Positions 27,822-55,151 of a stretch of 64,000 nucleotides of DNA are shown here, one piece after another. How positions within the stretch are numbered: position 1 is the first letter of the stretch; every line of letters begins with the position of its first letter. The notes below the pieces were generated by a model. The model worked only from the letters and a program-made list of their open reading frames with translations, ran no database searches and was not told the DNA's origin. This DNA comes from a virus: IMG/VR virus record IMGVR_UViG_3300037258_000147, positions 40,681 through 104,680 of that record; one strand, written 5' to 3'. The position numbers were made by a program, and so were the translations under genes.

Positions 27822-28499
27822 ATGGATATCAAGAATCTAGAGGATGTGGTTATTTACACATCCGCACTGCTCACAATCAAAGACGCTCTAGTAGAGGCTG
27901 TGTTAAAACGCGCGAACCTGTGCGGCGCGAACCTGTACGGCGCGAACCTGTGCGACGCGAACCTGTGCGACGCGAACCTGTGCGGCGCGAACCTGTACGG
28001 CGCGAACCTGTACGGCGCGAACCTGTGCGGCGCGAACCTGTACGGCGCGAACCTGTACGGCGCGAACCTGTGCGGCGCGGACCTGCGCGGCGCGAACCTG
28101 CGCGGCGCGAACCTGTACGGCGCGGACCTGTACGGCGCGTACCTGAGCGGGACTAAAAATTCAGACATTGCTTTATCTCGGATTCAATTCATCCCGGAAA
28201 CGGGAAGTTTTGAAGCGTGGAAGAAATGCGCGGACGGGGTTATTGTGAAGCTGCTCATCCCCGAAGATGCGGAACGTTCCCACGGAGCAGAACGGAAGTG
28301 CAGAGCCTCCAAAATTGTCGTATTGGATGTATTCGGAGCGGACTACGGCGTATCTGGCGGTGAATATGGAAAGATTGAATACCGCAAAGGGCAAACGGTG
28401 GAGCCAAAAAACGGATGGAACGAGGACCGTTGGACAGTCTGCGGGGCTGGTATCCATTTCTTTCTCACTCGGGCGGAGGCCGAAAACTACGAGTTTTGA
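27822..28499 (+). CDS. Pentapeptide-repeat protein with DUF5758-like C-terminus
   Basis: Start chosen at the second ATG (27822), correctly spaced from GAGGA. After a 25-residue helix come about 16 A(N/D)LxG pentapeptides, which fold as a square beta-helix that can mimic DNA (as in gyrase-protecting Qnr/MfpA). The C-terminus FIPETGSFEAWKKC...VIVKLLIPEDAERSHG...CRASKIVVL resembles the DUF5758 domain often fused to such repeats. The repeats are nearly identical at DNA level. Confidence 0.75.
   Translation: MDIKNLEDVVIYTSALLTIKDALVEAVLKRANLCGANLYGANLCDANLCDANLCGANLYGANLYGANLCGANLYGANLYGANLCGADLRGANLRGANLYGADLYGAYLSGTKNSDIALSRIQFIPETGSFEAWKKCADGVIVKLLIPEDAERSHGAERKCRASKIVVLDVFGADYGVSGGEYGKIEYRKGQTVEPKNGWNEDRWTVCGAGIHFFLTRAEAENYEF
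27907..28146 (+). repeat. Tandem 15-bp coding repeat
   Basis: About 16 units of GCGAACCTGTRCGGC with few substitutions; each encodes one pentapeptide. Near-identity implies recent expansion and length instability. Confidence 0.85.
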
Positions 28500-35787: not shown

Positions 35788-36030
35788 ATGAAAATCACGG
35801 TAACTCAGACGCACATTAAGAACGCCAAGAGGATGAATTTAGGCAAATGCCCTATCGCTCTGGCGTTGCATAATTACGGGTGGAAGAAGCCTTTGGTACG
35901 CTACAATACGGTCTCGGAAGGTCCCTGCGGACTACCCCACCGTCTGCCCCCCAGAGCATCCGCTTTCATCTGCCGTTTTGACCGAGGCAAGCCTGTTAAG
36001 CCTTTTACTTTCGAACTGGACACTGACTAA
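35788..36030 (+). CDS. CPIALAL paralogue family member 1 (80 aa)
   Basis: MKITVTQTHIKNAKRMNLGKCPIALALHNYGWKKPL...; ends FICRFDRGKPVKPFTFELD. Same frame of I-x-x-G/A-K, CP(I/V)ALAL, LP...F, FD-G-x-V-x-PF-x-FE as genes at 36741, 40370 and 46826. Unknown function; four copies in one genome suggest a phage-specific role. Confidence 0.65.
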   Translation: MKITVTQTHIKNAKRMNLGKCPIALALHNYGWKKPLVRYNTVSEGPCGLPHRLPPRASAFICRFDRGKPVKPFTFELDTD

Positions 36031-36583: not shown

Positions 36584-36744
36584 TGCACAAAACTTTCTGG
36601 ACGTTACTCCACGATCCGGCTCATCGGGAATTTGAAATTTTCCTGATGGTAGTATTTGGCGGAGTAGTAGGCGCGGCTTTGTGGCCTTGGATTAAGAAAC
36701 ACTGGGGCCATCATGTTTCTAGGGATAAAAAGGAGGGGGTATGA
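36583..36744 (+). CDS. Small membrane protein (53 aa)
   Basis: MHKTFWTLLHDPAHREFEIF LMVVFGGVVGAALWPWIKKH: one transmembrane helix with a basic/His tail. AGGAG SD; overlaps neighbours. Confidence 0.55.
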   Translation: MHKTFWTLLHDPAHREFEIFLMVVFGGVVGAALWPWIKKHWGHHVSRDKKEGV

Positions 36745-36980
36745 AGGTTGTAGTTACTCGGCAGCATATTTTGGATGGAAAGAAAGTCCGCACCCGGGCG
36801 TGTCCAGTCGCCTTGGCTCTCAGAGACTCTGGATGGAAAGAACCGGTTGTGGGGGTTTCTATTTGCTGGGAGGACGGAGTGGGGAAGCCTTTTGTTCTTC
36901 CTCTAAAAGTGCAGAGTTTTACAAACAGATTTGACAACGGACTTCCAGTCGAACCTTTTGAATTCGAGTTGTCCGATTAA
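36741..36980 (+). CDS. CPIALAL paralogue family member 2 (79 aa)
   Basis: MKVVVTRQHILDGKKVRTRACPVALALRDSGWKEPVV..., FDNGLPVEPFEFELSD. Its last codons (SD-stop) and the polymerase ATG are both supplied by the GTCC palindrome at 36971-36985 (TAATGG). Confidence 0.65.
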   Translation: MKVVVTRQHILDGKKVRTRACPVALALRDSGWKEPVVGVSICWEDGVGKPFVLPLKVQSFTNRFDNGLPVEPFEFELSD

Positions 36981-45822: not shown

Positions 45823-46383
45823 ATGCCAATTTACTATGTAAAATCAGCCACTTATTCCGGCGACCAAGGTCCTCAGTCCCGGGTCATTGCAATCGAAGCG
45901 GATTATTACGTTACCTCAGAACACGGTGACTACGAATTTATCAAGCGTGGCGTAGGTTCTCAAGACAACCGAACCGTGGCCACAGTCCAAGGTCGAGATG
46001 TATTTGCGGTATTTGAAGAAGGCGCGCGTCGAAGCGAGTTTTTGGAAGACCTTGCTGTAGAAGACGTTGAAGACTCCGACGACGTTTGTCTAGATTGTAG
46101 ATTTTCAGAACTTCTAGAGTCCGAGGAGTTCTTTGATGCGGTTTGCAAAGCATATGACGTTATCCAACAAGCCGACGCAGAGTCCGAGGAGCTTCCTACT
46201 ATCCACAAGCGTAAGTATCGGGGCGACGAATATTGGGGCTTTCTAAACGACGACGGGAATTTTGTCCCTTTTTTCAGCAGGTTGGACGCCGAAGACGGGT
46301 GGAAAGTCCGTCCGGAGTTAAAGACCCGTTGGTCTACCCTTCCCATCCACGAAACCGAACTTGTTAAGGAGACCGTCCAGTGA
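45823..46383 (+). CDS. Hypothetical acidic protein (186 aa)
   Basis: GGAGAATTG SD. MPIYYVKSATYSGDQGPQSR..., strongly acidic centre (LAVEDVEDSDDVCLDC), beta ends. Coupled to SSB by GTGA overlap. Unknown; could be an SSB- or repair-linked partner. Confidence 0.55.
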   Translation: MPIYYVKSATYSGDQGPQSRVIAIEADYYVTSEHGDYEFIKRGVGSQDNRTVATVQGRDVFAVFEEGARRSEFLEDLAVEDVEDSDDVCLDCRFSELLESEEFFDAVCKAYDVIQQADAESEELPTIHKRKYRGDEYWGFLNDDGNFVPFFSRLDAEDGWKVRPELKTRWSTLPIHETELVKETVQ

Positions 46384-46823
46384 GCGGATATTGCAATGTG
46401 ACAGTAGTAGGGGGTCTGGGCAAGGACCCTGAGGTCCGGGCCACGCCCAACGGTAAAAAAGTAGCTAATTTTTCAGTAGCTGTGGACCAAGGATTTGGAG
46501 ACAATAAGAAAACCGAATGGGTTAACGTAGTAGTTTTTGACAAACTCGCTGAACTTGCTGAGAAGTATCTCAAAAAGGGTAAGCAAGTAGCCTTGTCCGG
46601 GACCCTCCGAACCACTTCCTGGGACGACAAGCAATCTGGACAGAAGCGGTACAAAACCGAGGTTGTGGCCAGGGACTTGACTTTTATGGACACTCGTTCC
46701 GGCTCGACTGAAAACCGGGCGTCAGCCGCGCCTCCAGCCCGCCAACAAACCGCTCCCCCGGTCAGGGGTGCCCAAGACCCGTTCGCGGATACAGAAATCT
46801 CGGATGACGATATACCCTTTTAG
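46380..46823 (+). CDS. ssb: Single-stranded DNA-binding protein
   Basis: GTG start. 147 residues: OB-fold GYCNVTVVGGLGKDPEVR... KKTEWVNVVVFDKLAELAEKYLKKGK...GTLRTTSWDDKQSGQKRYKTEVVA, Pro/Gln linker, acidic tip SDDDIPF that recruits partner proteins. Covers ssDNA in replication and recombination. Confidence 0.92.
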   Translation: MSGYCNVTVVGGLGKDPEVRATPNGKKVANFSVAVDQGFGDNKKTEWVNVVVFDKLAELAEKYLKKGKQVALSGTLRTTSWDDKQSGQKRYKTEVVARDLTFMDTRSGSTENRASAAPPARQQTAPPVRGAQDPFADTEISDDDIPF

Positions 46824-46825
46824 CC

Positions 46826-47071
46826 ATGAAAATCCAAGTTATTGAAAAACATATTACCGACGGCAAGCGGGGGTCGTGTACGCACGATCCTGTTGCCTTG
46901 TCCCTATTAGATGCCGGATTCCAAAAACCCTGGGTCAGCCCCGGATACCTTGCCTGGAGGTTTGAAAACAAAGATTACTTTCAGGCTATACCAGAAAACG
47001 TGCTAGAATTTATGAAACAATTTGATAACGGGCAGTTGGTATACCCGTTCGATTTTGAGGTGGATGGATGA
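46826..47071 (+). CDS. CPIALAL paralogue family member 4 (81 aa)
   Basis: MKIQVIEKHITDGKRGSCTHDPVALSLLDAGFQKPWVSPGYLAWRF..., FDNGQLVYPFDFEVDG. Lacks the Cys-Pro of the other three (HDPVALSL) but keeps all the remaining pattern. Confidence 0.65.
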   Translation: MKIQVIEKHITDGKRGSCTHDPVALSLLDAGFQKPWVSPGYLAWRFENKDYFQAIPENVLEFMKQFDNGQLVYPFDFEVDG

Positions 47072-47397: not shown

Positions 47398-48426
47398 ATG
47401 GTAAAAGCTAACAAAAAGATACCCTCAAAACCAATATCCCTGAATGACGAGCAACAGGCCGTGGTGTCGGCCCGATCCGGGGTTTTCCAAGTCCAGGCAG
47501 GCCCGGGAAGTGGAAAGACTTTTGCTTGTACCCAGCGTATGGCCGGAATCCTGAAAGAAGGGGTTTCGCCAGACGATTTACTTTCTTTGTCCTTTACCTC
47601 AACCGGGGCGAAAAACCTAAAGACTAAAATCGAGGAAATTACCGGGGCCTTGTCCATTAATCGGACAGCCGGTACAATGACTTTTCACGGAATGGGGTTG
47701 AGATTTGCCCAAGAAGAAAGAGATGCGTTTAATTTTAAGGTTGCTGAATTCCCTCTTGCTACGGAGCCCGTGGCGTGCAAGCTGTCTGCCGAGGCCGCAA
47801 GACGATATGAAATTGATCCCCGCCTACTCCGGTCCCAGACAAGCCTATATAAGCGGAACCGGATTTCTCCTGCTGAGGCTGTCAAGAGAAGTGAGGCTTC
47901 ACTCAAACCCCAGGAACTGAAACTCGCTTTAGCCTATAAGAACTACGACGCCAAAATGAAGGAAAACGGGGTTTTGGATTTCGACTCTCTAATGTACGAA
48001 ATGGTGGAACTTCTAGAGAAACCAGATGTCCGGAAAAGATGGCAGTATAAATACGTAATTTGCGACGAGGCCCAAGACTGTTGTATTACGGACTGGCAGT
48101 TACTGAAGCTCATTACTGAGAAACACGGAAACTTAATGTGCGTAGGGGACCCCGGCCAGTCGGTTTTCGGATTTCGAGGAGCTTCCCCAGACTTGTTTTT
48201 GAATATGGAAAAAATGTTCCCCGCAGTTCGGAAATTGTTTTTGGCCGCGAACTACCGAAGCACCCCAGAGTTAGTGTCTTTCTTGAAAGAAATCGGACCA
48301 GTTCCTGAGTTGGCTGAAAAATTTCATACGTTAAACAGTTCAGGACCTGCGCCCGAAATAAAAGGTTTTGGAAACCAACAAGACGAAATAAACTGGATAG
48401 TTGGCAAGATCAAGGAGTCCATTTAA
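47398..48426 (+). CDS. UvrD-type helicase, N-terminal half
   Basis: 342 residues with motif I QAGPGSGKT (about 33-41), Ia, motif II VICDEAQD (about 219-226), III GDPGQSVFGFRGA, IV NYRSTPELV. Stops at TAA inside the GTCC palindrome at 48417-48431. Motifs V and VI are in the next gene, so helicase action needs both parts. An in-frame palindrome at 47652 codes LSINRTA. Confidence 0.88.
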   Translation: MVKANKKIPSKPISLNDEQQAVVSARSGVFQVQAGPGSGKTFACTQRMAGILKEGVSPDDLLSLSFTSTGAKNLKTKIEEITGALSINRTAGTMTFHGMGLRFAQEERDAFNFKVAEFPLATEPVACKLSAEAARRYEIDPRLLRSQTSLYKRNRISPAEAVKRSEASLKPQELKLALAYKNYDAKMKENGVLDFDSLMYEMVELLEKPDVRKRWQYKYVICDEAQDCCITDWQLLKLITEKHGNLMCVGDPGQSVFGFRGASPDLFLNMEKMFPAVRKLFLAANYRSTPELVSFLKEIGPVPELAEKFHTLNSSGPAPEIKGFGNQQDEINWIVGKIKESI

Positions 48427-48431
48427 TGGAC
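48417..48431. repeat. GTCC-N7-GGAC palindrome splitting the helicase
   Basis: GTCCATTTAATGGAC provides both the TAA stop and the overlapping ATG start between the two helicase halves. Confidence 0.9.
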
Positions 48432-49241
48432 AAGTCTGTCGCTATTTTAAACCGAACAAATCGGGGACTCCGGCCCTTTGAAGACGCTTTGTCCGAGGCT
48501 GGAGTGAAATACTACCTCGTAGGCCGAAGTGGTTTCTGGAGCCAGCCTGAGATTCGGGCAGTCGTTTCAATCCTGGGCTGTGTTTTGTACCCGGCAGACC
48601 ACTATCTCATGGGGGCTGTTTCCTCTCCGTTCTGGCCAACAAAATTTCTGCCAAAAACGAAAATTTTATCCAGACTAAAAGAAATTAGAGGAGAGCAACC
48701 TAAGGAATCTGCAATATCTCACTGGCAGATGCTTACCACAAGACCGGAATCGGTAGTAGAATCGAAAAACCTAGGGGCACTTCGAGAGTTTACTCAGTTC
48801 GTACACTCGCTCTCCCGATACCGGGATTTAAGAGCAGTAGACGGACTAAAGTCTGTTATGGCGACTCTAAAAGTCGGGGATTATTTTTCTGAAATAGAGG
48901 AAACCCCAGACTCAAGTCCTCTCGACAATCTCCAGGAACTCTTAAGGTTGTCCGAAAAATGGACAAATATCCGGGAGTTTATGGATTACACTAGGCGAGC
49001 TTCGGCGGCTAGTAAGGGTCGTAAAGGAGTGGCTTTAAGTACGATCCACGGATTCAAAGGCATGGAGTCTGATATTGTGTTCCTGGTAGGGTGTCAGGAA
49101 GGCCAAATGCCTCACTCTAAATCAACGGACTTACCTGAAGAAAGAAATCTGTTTTTCGTCGGGTGCTCTCGCCCGAAACAGGGACTTTACATTACTTACA
49201 CTGGGGTCCCTTCACAATTTTTGAAAAAGGAACCCTCATGA
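48426..49241 (+). CDS. UvrD-type helicase, C-terminal half
   Basis: 271 residues. YYLVGRSGFWSQPEIRAVVS, motif V GVALSTIHGFKGMESDIVFLVGCQEG, motif VI EERNLFFVGCSRPKQGLYI. Starts by TAATG overlap with the first half, so the two are made together. Carries another in-frame palindrome at 48950 (LSEKWTN). Confidence 0.88.
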   Translation: MDKSVAILNRTNRGLRPFEDALSEAGVKYYLVGRSGFWSQPEIRAVVSILGCVLYPADHYLMGAVSSPFWPTKFLPKTKILSRLKEIRGEQPKESAISHWQMLTTRPESVVESKNLGALREFTQFVHSLSRYRDLRAVDGLKSVMATLKVGDYFSEIEETPDSSPLDNLQELLRLSEKWTNIREFMDYTRRASAASKGRKGVALSTIHGFKGMESDIVFLVGCQEGQMPHSKSTDLPEERNLFFVGCSRPKQGLYITYTGVPSQFLKKEPS

Positions 49242-49666
49242 CCAAAAATCTCGCAGATACCACCCCCGAAATTCACAAACGTTGGTTTGCGGGCAAGAAA
49301 TTGATTGATGTCGTCGGCTTCGAGCCGTACATCCGCTATGTGTTCGAGGGCGGCGGATATTTCGAGCAATACCGGCGTCTCGGCGAATTAAACTGGGTCA
49401 AGGTTGAAAACGGACTGCCTCCTAATAGCCCCGTAGGTCCAGAAACCGATCTGGTTCTTGTCCACACGAATCGAGAGTATCTTCCCAATATCACTACTGC
49501 TTCGGGAGAATACACAGAAGATGGATTTCAGTGGACCTTAGATAATAAAAGGGTCCTTGAGCCAGTATGGGGAGGACGCGACCCCCTTAAAGTAACCGAG
49601 TGGGCCGCTATTAGCTTACCAATAAATCATGAAGGAAAGGTTTCCGAATGCACAAAAAACACATAA
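49238..49666 (+). CDS. Hypothetical protein (142 aa)
   Basis: ATGA overlap with the helicase. MTKNLADTTPEIHKRWFAGKKLIDVVGFEPYIRYVFEGGG YFEQYRRLGELNWVKVENGL..., alpha/beta. Unknown. Confidence 0.55.
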   Translation: MTKNLADTTPEIHKRWFAGKKLIDVVGFEPYIRYVFEGGGYFEQYRRLGELNWVKVENGLPPNSPVGPETDLVLVHTNREYLPNITTASGEYTEDGFQWTLDNKRVLEPVWGGRDPLKVTEWAAISLPINHEGKVSECTKNT

Positions 49667-51169: not shown

Positions 51170-51363
51170 ACGCTATCGGCGTCCCTTTGAGCTCTCCAAA
51201 CTGGTGGAAGAATTGTGTAGACCAAGACGGAAACCCTGTCCACATCCTTACCATGAAAGATTTGGAGGAGATGATTCCTAAAGAGATTATAGACAGGCTG
51301 GCTGCGGAACTCGGCAAAAGACTGAATGAGACGATAACTAAGATAGGGAGAAATATGCTATGA
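51166..51363 (+). CDS. Hypothetical protein (65 aa)
   Basis: ATGA overlap. MNAIGVPLSSPNWWKNCVDQDGNPVHILTMKDLEEMIPKE...; helical C-terminus. Overlaps the nuclease start. Confidence 0.5.
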   Translation: MNAIGVPLSSPNWWKNCVDQDGNPVHILTMKDLEEMIPKEIIDRLAAELGKRLNETITKIGRNML

Positions 51364-52523
51364 GTTTGTACACTAGTGCTTCGGGGAGGGCCGTCAATCA
51401 CGCTTCAAGTTCCAGTTTGGATACCTACAGGCTGTGCCGACGGAAATTCAAGCTGTCCCGCATCGATGGCTGGCGGCAGAAATCCAGGAAAGCTAGTCTA
51501 GAAATTGGCAAGTGCCTTGAGACCGCTTTACAGTATTATTACGAAAATGGCTGTAAGCCTGATGATTTTTCGGACGAGTGGAAACGCTTGTGGCTGAAAT
51601 TCGAGTCGATTGAACTCGTCTATACAGACCAGGAACAAGACTGGAAAACCGTTTACCAGTTAGGTACCGAGTGGGCGAAATTATTCCACGTAATCCGCGA
51701 TACTCTGCCCATCCGAAATCCTAAGTGGCAACTCCAGTTTTTGAAGGAACTGTGGCCGGGTGACTTGAATCTTGGCGGCATCAACTTCATGGGATATGTG
51801 GATATCCTTTCGATTTTAGCAGACGGGACTCGGTTAATTATCGATGTAAAAACTGCGAAGTCTAGTTTACCCATAACCTCGGGAATGATGGCCCTTGACG
51901 GGCAGCTTCGTAAATACGCTTGGCTTTCCGGAATCCGAGAAGTCGGGTTTTTGAACTTCGTTAAGTGCGACCCAAATTCTTTCCGTAAAGGAGTTGGGGT
52001 AACACTACTAGAAGATACTAGAGACTGGAAAGCCGGTCAGGTTCTGGTAGTCGCTAAATATTCGGCGGCAAAAGAAGATTCTGCGGAGTTATTTTACTTA
52101 GGTACCGAAGAAACCGTCCATAAAATGGACGAAGAACTTGACGCGATTTCTGGAAAAGGGGCTAAAGAAAAAACAGAGGCTGTTTTCTCCGGATATCTGG
52201 CAGACGGGAGACTTTGCGTAATAACAAGATCGGCGCTCACCAAAGTTAAAATCCAGTTTGTTCGTGGTACAATACCCGAAGAAGACCTGCCCGAAATTGG
52301 CCAGCAACTAGGTACAGATACCTATGCTATATTTCAGGCGCAGAAAACCGGATATCCGGCAGATGGGGGAGTAAGATTTCCAAACGCGATCTGTGGATGG
52401 TGTGAGATGCGTGGAATTTGCCTAAAGGACAACAGGCTGCGGGACGAACTTCTCGTCCAAATAGGCCCCAAAGTTGAAGAGGATGACTGGCTAAAGGAAC
52501 TGGAAACAGAGGAGACGGAATGA
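51360..52523 (+). CDS. PD-(D/E)XK exonuclease (RecB/Cas4-like)
   Basis: 387 residues. SSLDTYRLCRRKFKLSRIDGW start, GYVDILSILADGTRLIIDVKTAK core (D about 146, D about 161, K about 163) and C-terminal ICGWCEMRGIC cysteines that could hold an iron-sulphur cluster as in Cas4/AddB. Likely supplies ssDNA for the RecT-like protein. In-frame GTCC palindrome at 52116 codes VHKMD. Confidence 0.8.
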   Translation: MSLYTSASGRAVNHASSSSLDTYRLCRRKFKLSRIDGWRQKSRKASLEIGKCLETALQYYYENGCKPDDFSDEWKRLWLKFESIELVYTDQEQDWKTVYQLGTEWAKLFHVIRDTLPIRNPKWQLQFLKELWPGDLNLGGINFMGYVDILSILADGTRLIIDVKTAKSSLPITSGMMALDGQLRKYAWLSGIREVGFLNFVKCDPNSFRKGVGVTLLEDTRDWKAGQVLVVAKYSAAKEDSAELFYLGTEETVHKMDEELDAISGKGAKEKTEAVFSGYLADGRLCVITRSALTKVKIQFVRGTIPEEDLPEIGQQLGTDTYAIFQAQKTGYPADGGVRFPNAICGWCEMRGICLKDNRLRDELLVQIGPKVEEDDWLKELETEETE

Positions 52524-54584: not shown

Positions 54585-55151
54585 ATGAGCTTATCAAAGA
54601 AAACCAGATTCGAAATATTCAAGAGAGATGGGTTCACTTGCCAGTATTGCGGGCAGCGGCCTCCTGAAGTCGTGCTTGAAGTAGACCATATTCACCCCTC
54701 TTCCAAGGGTGGTTCTGACGACGAAATCAACCTCATAACTTCTTGTTTCGACTGCAATCGTGGGAAATCTGATAAGAAGATTGGGGACATCCATCCACGC
54801 CCGGACGCAGACATAAGGTATCTTGAGACTCAGCAGGAAATCGGAGAAGCAAAGAGATATCTCACATCCCAAGAACAACTTGCCGTAGTCCAAAAACAGA
54901 TTAAAGAGCGCCTCAAGGATTTGTGGACTGAGTATTTGACCCCAACCTACGCACCTTCAGATAAACAGTTCGGGGCTTGGTTAGCGTGGCATAGTCCAGA
55001 AGACTTAGACTTTGCAATTCGTAGGGCTTCAGGAAAATACCAAAGCGGGTCCCTTCAAAGAGGAAACGAAAAGTACTCCTGCGAAAGCTGTATCCGATAT
55101 GTCAGCGGCATCATGAAGAGCGTAGCACAAGAACGAGAAGCCAATGGATGA
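54585..55151 (+). CDS. HNH endonuclease
   Basis: 188 residues. FTCQYCGQRPPEVVLEVDHIHPSSKGG...NLITSCFDCNRGKSDK is a full HNH core (H about 32, N about 48, H-equivalent in the zinc pair). Helical C-terminus. Overlaps the initiator-like gene by 8 nt, so it is part of the replication operon, not an obvious insertion. Confidence 0.85.
   Translation: MSLSKKTRFEIFKRDGFTCQYCGQRPPEVVLEVDHIHPSSKGGSDDEINLITSCFDCNRGKSDKKIGDIHPRPDADIRYLETQQEIGEAKRYLTSQEQLAVVQKQIKERLKDLWTEYLTPTYAPSDKQFGAWLAWHSPEDLDFAIRRASGKYQSGSLQRGNEKYSCESCIRYVSGIMKSVAQEREANG

What the first reader, a model, noticed from the sequence alone, without database searches (positions are those of the whole stretch)
47398..49241. UvrD-type helicase split in two exactly at a palindrome copy
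Motifs I-IV and V-VI lie in two genes joined by GTCCATTTAATGGAC, which creates both the TAA stop and the overlapping ATG. The split falls between motif IV and V, so two chains could assemble into one helicase. It shows the repeat reshaping a core gene.
Basis: partly seen in the sequence, partly recalled or inferred. Interest (0 to 1): 0.62.

Follow-up and report, generated by a model that had tools for sequence, protein, structure and literature searches.

The report
Conserved two-piece UvrD-like phage helicase
In a family of uncultured phages a DNA helicase is encoded as two separate genes, cut at the same point and inherited independently of each other; the repeated palindrome at the joint is a common gene-start signal in these phages and probably not what broke the gene.

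Summary
UvrD motifs I-IV (47398-48426) and V-VI (48426-49241) are two genes that meet in GTCCATTTAATGGAC (48417-48431), which supplies the TAA stop and the overlapping ATG. The palindrome is real: 35 copies in the 104.7-kb virus record, none of the reversed control.

Twelve related virus records carry the same split at the same residue; three further lineages keep one 593-603-aa protein. In all twelve the halves lie 0.38-2.3 kb apart with small phage genes between them, in two cases a homing-endonuclease-type gene. Genome-wide, the palindrome sits just before, or on, gene starts. In this phage the halves abut most likely because intervening genes were lost at a shared AAGGAG(TCC) ribosome-site sequence.

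The two halves have different phylogenies (AU p 3e-5 and 7e-6), so they reassort between phages. All helicase motifs are conserved, and the cut falls in a loop of a PcrA-like fold. A two-chain helicase is the best reading. New variant of a known kind (split phage enzymes).

The parts
47398..48426 (+). N-half gene of UvrD/PcrA-like helicase (342 aa): motifs I, Ia, II, III, IV
   Evidence: Pfam PF00580 E 6.4e-50; alignment with invariant motifs
48426..49241 (+). C-half gene (271 aa): AIL.RTN segment, motifs V and VI
   Evidence: Pfam PF13361 E 1.3e-24; alignment of C halves
48417..48431 (.). Palindrome GTCCATTTAATGGAC; contains TAA stop of N (48424-48426) and ATG of C (48426-48428)
   Evidence: exact match; one of 35 in the record; start-codon-inside class
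48412..48417 (+). AAGGAG ribosome-binding sequence for the C gene, encoded in the last codons of N (..K-E-S-I*), last G shared with the palindrome
   Evidence: sequence; ATCAAGGAG also at the N end of G046, G076, G085 and AAGGAGTCCA before C in G048, G075, G078
47652..47666 (.). Degenerate palindrome copy inside the N gene; an exact copy lies within the N part of the unsplit gene of G020
   Evidence: 2-mismatch hit; G020 palindrome within its helicase gene
49238..49666 (+). Gene after C whose relatives lie between N and C in G060, G075 and G077 (family F14)
   Evidence: DNA matches 75-79%, family table
46380..46823 (+). SSB gene; left edge of the variable block that holds the helicase halves
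   Evidence: Pfam SSB E 8.7e-32; same order in relatives
51360..52523 (+). PD-(D/E)XK nuclease gene; right edge of the variable block
   Evidence: Pfam PDDEXK_1 E 1.3e-13; same order in relatives

Best explanation
A PcrA/UvrD-like replication or recombination helicase gene of this phage lineage was split once, long ago, in a loop between the 1A core and the first strand of domain 2A. It has since been maintained as two genes whose products assemble into one helicase. Shown: the conserved split point, intact motifs, purifying selection on both halves, intact single-chain relatives, different phylogenies of the halves. Inferred: that the two chains assemble and work. The palindrome is one of about 35 start-associated, probably protein-recognised sites in the genome and was not the cause of the split. 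In this phage the halves abut most likely because the genes between them were lost by recombination at the AAGGAG(TCC) sequence present both at the 3' end of N and in front of C (inferred). The C gene is now positioned for coupled translation across TAATG from the ribosome site that serves the next gene in relatives. The original split may have come from a homing-endonuclease or gene-cassette insertion.
For: Same split residue in 12 related records; single ORFs of 593, 595 and 603 aa in three other lineages. Split clade monophyletic in the N tree, 90/94. dN well below dS in both halves, e.g. C of G048/G079 0.077 against 0.721. The unsplit relative models well (pLDDT 90), matches PcrA (TM 0.79; profile E 3.6e-89 to 1pjr), and the split maps to the loop 325-329 between a helix and a strand. 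Gap family F7 directly follows N in G048, N-tree sister of the window, and in other relatives, so a gap looks ancestral. N ends with ATCAAGGAG in relatives and C is preceded by AAGGAGTCCA in relatives. Palindrome centres lie 15-25 bp upstream of a start in 47 of 177 (3.3 expected) or have the ATG inside in 10 of 177 (0.3 expected). Palindromes at matching coding positions keep the arms but change the core to the phage's own type.
Against: No biochemistry; a two-chain complex could not be modelled here. The G000 arrangement (N ending in KES + palindrome + MD) could also be the ancestral state with genes inserted later: the N ends of several relatives carry a KES-like tail. Split-clade support is weak in the C tree (57/68). 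Gene calls for the palindrome statistics come from a simple home-made caller.
Confidence: 0.72

Rival explanations
1. One reading: the palindrome, with its ribosome site and stop-start overlap, arose in or was inserted into the helicase gene and split it. The window keeps the original state, and relatives gained genes at this junction later.
For: AAGGAGTCCRRTAATGGAC (KES*/MD) is a recurrent junction in split-clade phages and was not seen in G020, G047 or the G082/G085 stretches. N ends of G075 and G085 read ..IKES.. and 12 of 14 C genes start ATGGAC or GTGGAC.
Against: Seven split relatives have no palindrome at the C start. Gap family F7 occurs next to N on both sides of the first fork of the N tree. 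Palindromes normally sit at existing gene starts without breaking genes.
Confidence: 0.15
2. Origin by a free-standing homing endonuclease that inserted into the helicase gene, as for Aeh1 nrdA/mobE and T4 topoisomerase 60/mobA. The endonuclease was later lost in most lineages, and its cutting drives exchange of the flanking halves. Compatible with the best explanation as the origin of the split.
For: GIY-YIG gene in the gap of G077, its end overlapping the C start; HNH gene in the gap of G079; GIY-YIG gene directly upstream of N in G081. Precedents of split phage enzymes (PMC2988022) and nuclease genes at exchange boundaries (PMC10448857).
Against: Most split relatives, and this phage, have no recognisable endonuclease gene in the gap. 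The endonucleases differ in type and position and could be later arrivals. No Rfam intron hit in seven relative loci.
Confidence: 0.35
3. The halves act separately: N as a stand-alone ATPase/DNA-binding protein, C as a separate regulator or remnant.
For: The halves are unlinked in their evolution (Mantel r 0.14, p 0.21), as if not tightly co-adapted.
Against: Motif V and the arginine of motif VI, needed for ATP hydrolysis in SF1 helicases (general knowledge), are only in C and are conserved. All 12 relatives keep both halves in the same order and on the same strand.
Confidence: 0.07
4. Pseudogene, sequencing error or frameshift-fused product.
For: A one-base overlap is what a single indel in one gene could look like.
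Against: Same split in 12 other records with whole genes in between; ribosome site and start codon in place; both halves conserved; no slippery sequence seen at the junction.
Confidence: 0.02

Closest known systems
PcrA/UvrD/Rep superfamily 1A helicases
   Same: All signature motifs; PcrA-like predicted fold of the unsplit relative
   Different: Encoded as two genes, cut near the start of domain 2A; about 610 aa in total
Split phage enzymes: Aeh1 NrdA (mobE), T4 topoisomerase (mobA in gene 60), phage 25 DNA polymerase 43A/43B (PMC2988022)
   Same: One conserved enzyme encoded as two chains relative to related phages; endonuclease genes in the gap in some members
   Different: Another enzyme; most members, including this one, have no endonuclease in the gap; the halves reassort between phages
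Palindromic 17-bp repeats of Cluster O mycobacteriophages (PMC4351075)
   Same: 34 invariant-arm palindromes in Corndog with variable core, in and between genes; recombination between copies explains gene gain or loss there
   Different: Other sequence; not closely tied to start codons in Cluster O, whereas here strongly start-associated
Start Associated Sequences of Cluster K mycobacteriophages (PMC3203893)
   Same: Repeats located at translation starts, tied to the ribosome site
   Different: SAS is asymmetric (GGGATAGGAGCCC); here a palindrome beside or over the ribosome site, also found inside genes
Stoperators of Cluster A mycobacteriophages (PMC6550527)
   Same: 20-30 dispersed sites whose sequence differs by phage
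   Different: Stoperators are asymmetric and oriented with transcription; no binding protein identified here

Membership tests
UvrD/Rep (SF1A) helicase | Motifs I-VI | tested here: met
   Motifs I-IV in N, V-VI in C, conserved in relatives
UvrD/Rep (SF1A) helicase | PcrA/UvrD-like fold | tested here: met
   Tested on the unsplit relative G020: AF2 pLDDT 90, Foldseek 1pjr TM 0.79
UvrD/Rep (SF1A) helicase | Single polypeptide | tested here: not met
   Two genes in the window and 12 relatives. It works like a UvrD helicase if the chains assemble
UvrD/Rep (SF1A) helicase | 3'-5' ATP-dependent unwinding | not testable with these tools
   needs protein
Split phage enzymes created by homing endonucleases | Gene continuous in related phages | tested here: met
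   G020, G047/G051 and G082 single ORFs
Split phage enzymes created by homing endonucleases | Endonuclease gene between the halves | tested here: inconclusive
   Present in G077 and G079, absent in the window and most relatives
Split phage enzymes created by homing endonucleases | Chains assemble to an active enzyme | not testable with these tools
   no complex modelling or assay available
Cluster A stoperators | Asymmetric site oriented with transcription | tested here: not met
   Site is a palindrome; core orientation mixed (46 to 29 near starts)
Cluster A stoperators | Bound by the phage repressor | not testable with these tools
   no binding protein identified
Cluster O type dispersed palindrome | Tens of copies, invariant arms, variable core, genome-wide | tested here: met
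   23-37 copies in five large split-clade records, cores specific to each phage; arms fixed by the search pattern itself
Start Associated Sequence | Located at translation starts | tested here: met
   57 of 177 within 25 bp upstream of or over a start, 3.6 expected
Start Associated Sequence | Asymmetric GGGATAGGAGCCC sequence | tested here: not met
   Sequence is GTCCAN5TGGAC

The most novel reading that the evidence does not exclude
Splitting turned one helicase into two freely exchangeable subunits: N and C genes from lineages about 50-60% identical pair up in new combinations. Conserved ribosome-site/palindrome/stop-start junctions (AAGGAGTCCRRTAATGGAC) act as joints that let genes, including enzyme halves, be shuffled without breaking reading frames.
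Probability: 0.25. Interest if true: 0.72.

Novelty: new variant of a known kind. Interest (0 to 1): 0.5.

Why it matters
Few phage enzymes are known to have become two-gene enzymes; the literature found here gave ribonucleotide reductase, topoisomerase and DNA polymerase, and no UvrD-like helicase. A conserved split whose halves have different phylogenies offers a direct test of how tightly helicase domains must co-adapt, and a natural set of possibly interchangeable halves. It also shows how a start-associated repeat can be mistaken for the cause of a gene split.

Tried and rejected
Direct single-sequence scans of viral contigs with either half found nothing; relatives came through the palindrome pattern and then through alignments. 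A genome scan found only distant chromosomal helicases at about 25-42% identity, so no host or prophage was identified. Searches of 50,697 phage records gave only hits under 60% identity with mostly single-chain annotations; SPO1-type phages have an intein-containing UvrD-like helicase. Intron idea: no Rfam hit in seven loci. Frameshift fusion: no slippery site seen, and relatives have genes in between. A palindrome mRNA hairpin over the AUG is possible, but the 55-nt stretches fold only modestly better than shuffles (z -1.9, -1.0, -2.4, -0.3). No obvious repressor gene was seen among proteins near the integrase (by eye). Literature searches for split UvrD helicases and gene fission in phage helicases gave nothing relevant.

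Full report
What is there. The window is bases 40681-104680 of a 104,680-base IMG/VR virus record. At 47398-48426 and 48426-49241 two genes on the + strand share one base, TAATG. The first encodes the N-terminal part of a UvrD/Rep helicase (PF00580, E 6.4e-50), the second the C-terminal part (PF13361, E 1.3e-24). Both hit consecutive parts of the same phage helicase profile. The overlap lies inside the palindrome GTCCATTTAATGGAC (48417-48431), and AAGGAG (48412-48417) is in place as ribosome site for the second gene. The palindrome is not a chance event: 35 GTCCAN5TGGAC copies in the record and 0 of the reversed control; 49 both-strand matches with up to 2 mismatches in the window against 0.11 expected.

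Relatives. Scans with single proteins failed, but scanning for the palindrome led to a family of virus records, and alignment searches added more. Twelve related records carry both halves as separate genes (the start of N in G077 is cut off by the contig edge; G060 shows only C). Three lineages have one uninterrupted gene: G020 (593 aa), G047 = G051 (595 aa) and G082 (603 aa). In the alignment the N halves end at the same place (typically ..I-K-E-x) and nearly all C halves begin with M-D and then A-I-L-x-R-T-N, with nothing missing relative to the unsplit proteins. Motifs I-IV are in N and V-VI in C in all of them.

The halves are usually not adjacent. In the twelve split relatives they are about 0.38-2.3 kb apart, with one to seven small genes between them. 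The window is the only case found where they abut. One gap gene family (F7) directly follows N in G048, the closest relative by N half, and in several others, so a gap was probably present in the common ancestor. The gene after C in the window (49238-49666) has its relatives in the gap in G060, G075 and G077.

Why they abut here. Relatives end N with ATCAAGGAG (G046, G076, G085; G085 has ATCAAGGAGTCC), placed as ribosome site of the next gene. C is preceded by AAGGAGTCCA in G048, G075 and G078. The window junction ATCAAGGAGTCCATTTAATGGAC is what recombination at AAGGAG(TCC) between these two places would give. This step is inferred. The reverse history, with the abutting state ancestral and genes inserted later, is not excluded.

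The palindrome does not explain the split. An exact palindrome lies on the C start in G000, G048, G075, G078 and G081, a one-base variant in G080, and none in G046, G065, G076, G077, G079, G084 or G085. Genome-wide, over six records, 47 of 177 palindromes are centred 15-25 bp upstream of a called start (3.3 expected), just before the ribosome site, and 10 have the ATG inside (0.3 expected). The joint AAGGAGTCCRRTAATGGAC (KES*/MD) recurs between unrelated small genes of the split-clade phages and was not seen in G020, G047 or the G082/G085 stretches. The core is specific to each phage. Palindromes inside genes at matching positions keep the arms and take the local core type, which points to sites recognised in trans rather than to insertions. 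The nearest published parallels are the 17-bp palindromes of Cluster O mycobacteriophages, where recombination between copies was inferred to cause gene gain or loss (PMC4351075), the start-associated sequences of Cluster K (PMC3203893) and stoperators (PMC6550527). What binds it is unknown.

Function of the split protein. dN is far below dS in both halves (dS is saturated in most pairs), so both are under purifying selection. An AlphaFold2 model of the unsplit relative, built with an alignment that contains the halves, has mean pLDDT 90 and matches PcrA (1pjr TM 0.79; profile E 3.6e-89). The split falls in the loop 325-329 between helix 314-324 and strand 330-334, so a chain break there is structurally plausible. 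PDB entries also exist in which PcrA is deposited as several chains (1qhh, 2pjr). Phage precedents of working split enzymes are Aeh1 NrdA and phage 25 DNA polymerase (PMC2988022). Assembly of N and C here is inferred, not shown.

Reassortment. The N and C trees disagree. G000 and G048 are sisters by N (92/93), while G048 and G079 are sisters by C (98/95) with 89% identity against 58% for N. AU tests reject G048+G079 in the N tree (p 2.8e-5) and G000+G048 in the C tree (p 7e-6). These groups were chosen after seeing the trees, which weakens the p values. N and C distances are uncorrelated (r 0.14, p 0.21), whereas the two parts of C correlate (r 0.55, p 0.0002) and the two parts of N more weakly (r 0.39, p 0.04), so some recombination probably also occurs within N. 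Ends of shared DNA stretches often coincide with the ribosome site/palindrome or the ATGGAC start.

Origin. A GIY-YIG endonuclease gene lies in the gap of G077 and overlaps the start of C; an HNH gene lies in the gap of G079; a GIY-YIG gene lies directly before N in G081. Such genes are scattered elsewhere in these genomes too, so their link to the split is suggestive only.

Verdict. Observation confirmed. The two-chain helicase reading is supported by conservation. The claim that the repeat reshaped the gene is not supported. The unexpected part is the independent inheritance of the two halves.

Noticed in passing
G046, G048, G078, G079, G000 (L284-L303, window): Palindromes at matching codon positions inside genes of 37-65% identical proteins keep GTCCA/TGGAC but swap the 5-bp core to the type of the phage (e.g. 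GATAG, GGTAG, GATTG), hinting at a trans-acting binder with phage-specific sites.
   Followed up: partly
window 54585-55151 (HNH match 54639-54776): HNH endonuclease-type gene about 5.3 kb downstream of the split helicase; the record holds four HNH matches in all.
   Followed up: no
window 27822-28499: Protein with a long run of A-N-L-(Y/C)-G pentapeptide repeats.
   Followed up: no
L231:1754-2776 (G077): GIY-YIG endonuclease gene with helix-turn-helix repeats whose 3' end overlaps the start of the C-half helicase gene, which there lacks the usual MD start.
   Followed up: partly
L232:4914 (G048) and L239:3986 (G079), 3' ends of N: The last residues of N (CIQE-QNV) and the following gap gene are similar in G048 and G079 although N overall is only 58% identical, suggesting an exchange breakpoint within the N gene.
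   Followed up: partly
window 46826-47071, 35788-36030, 36741-36980: Small paralogous proteins starting K-(I/V)-x-V-T/E-x-x-H-I recur several times around the replication genes of one genome.
   Followed up: no
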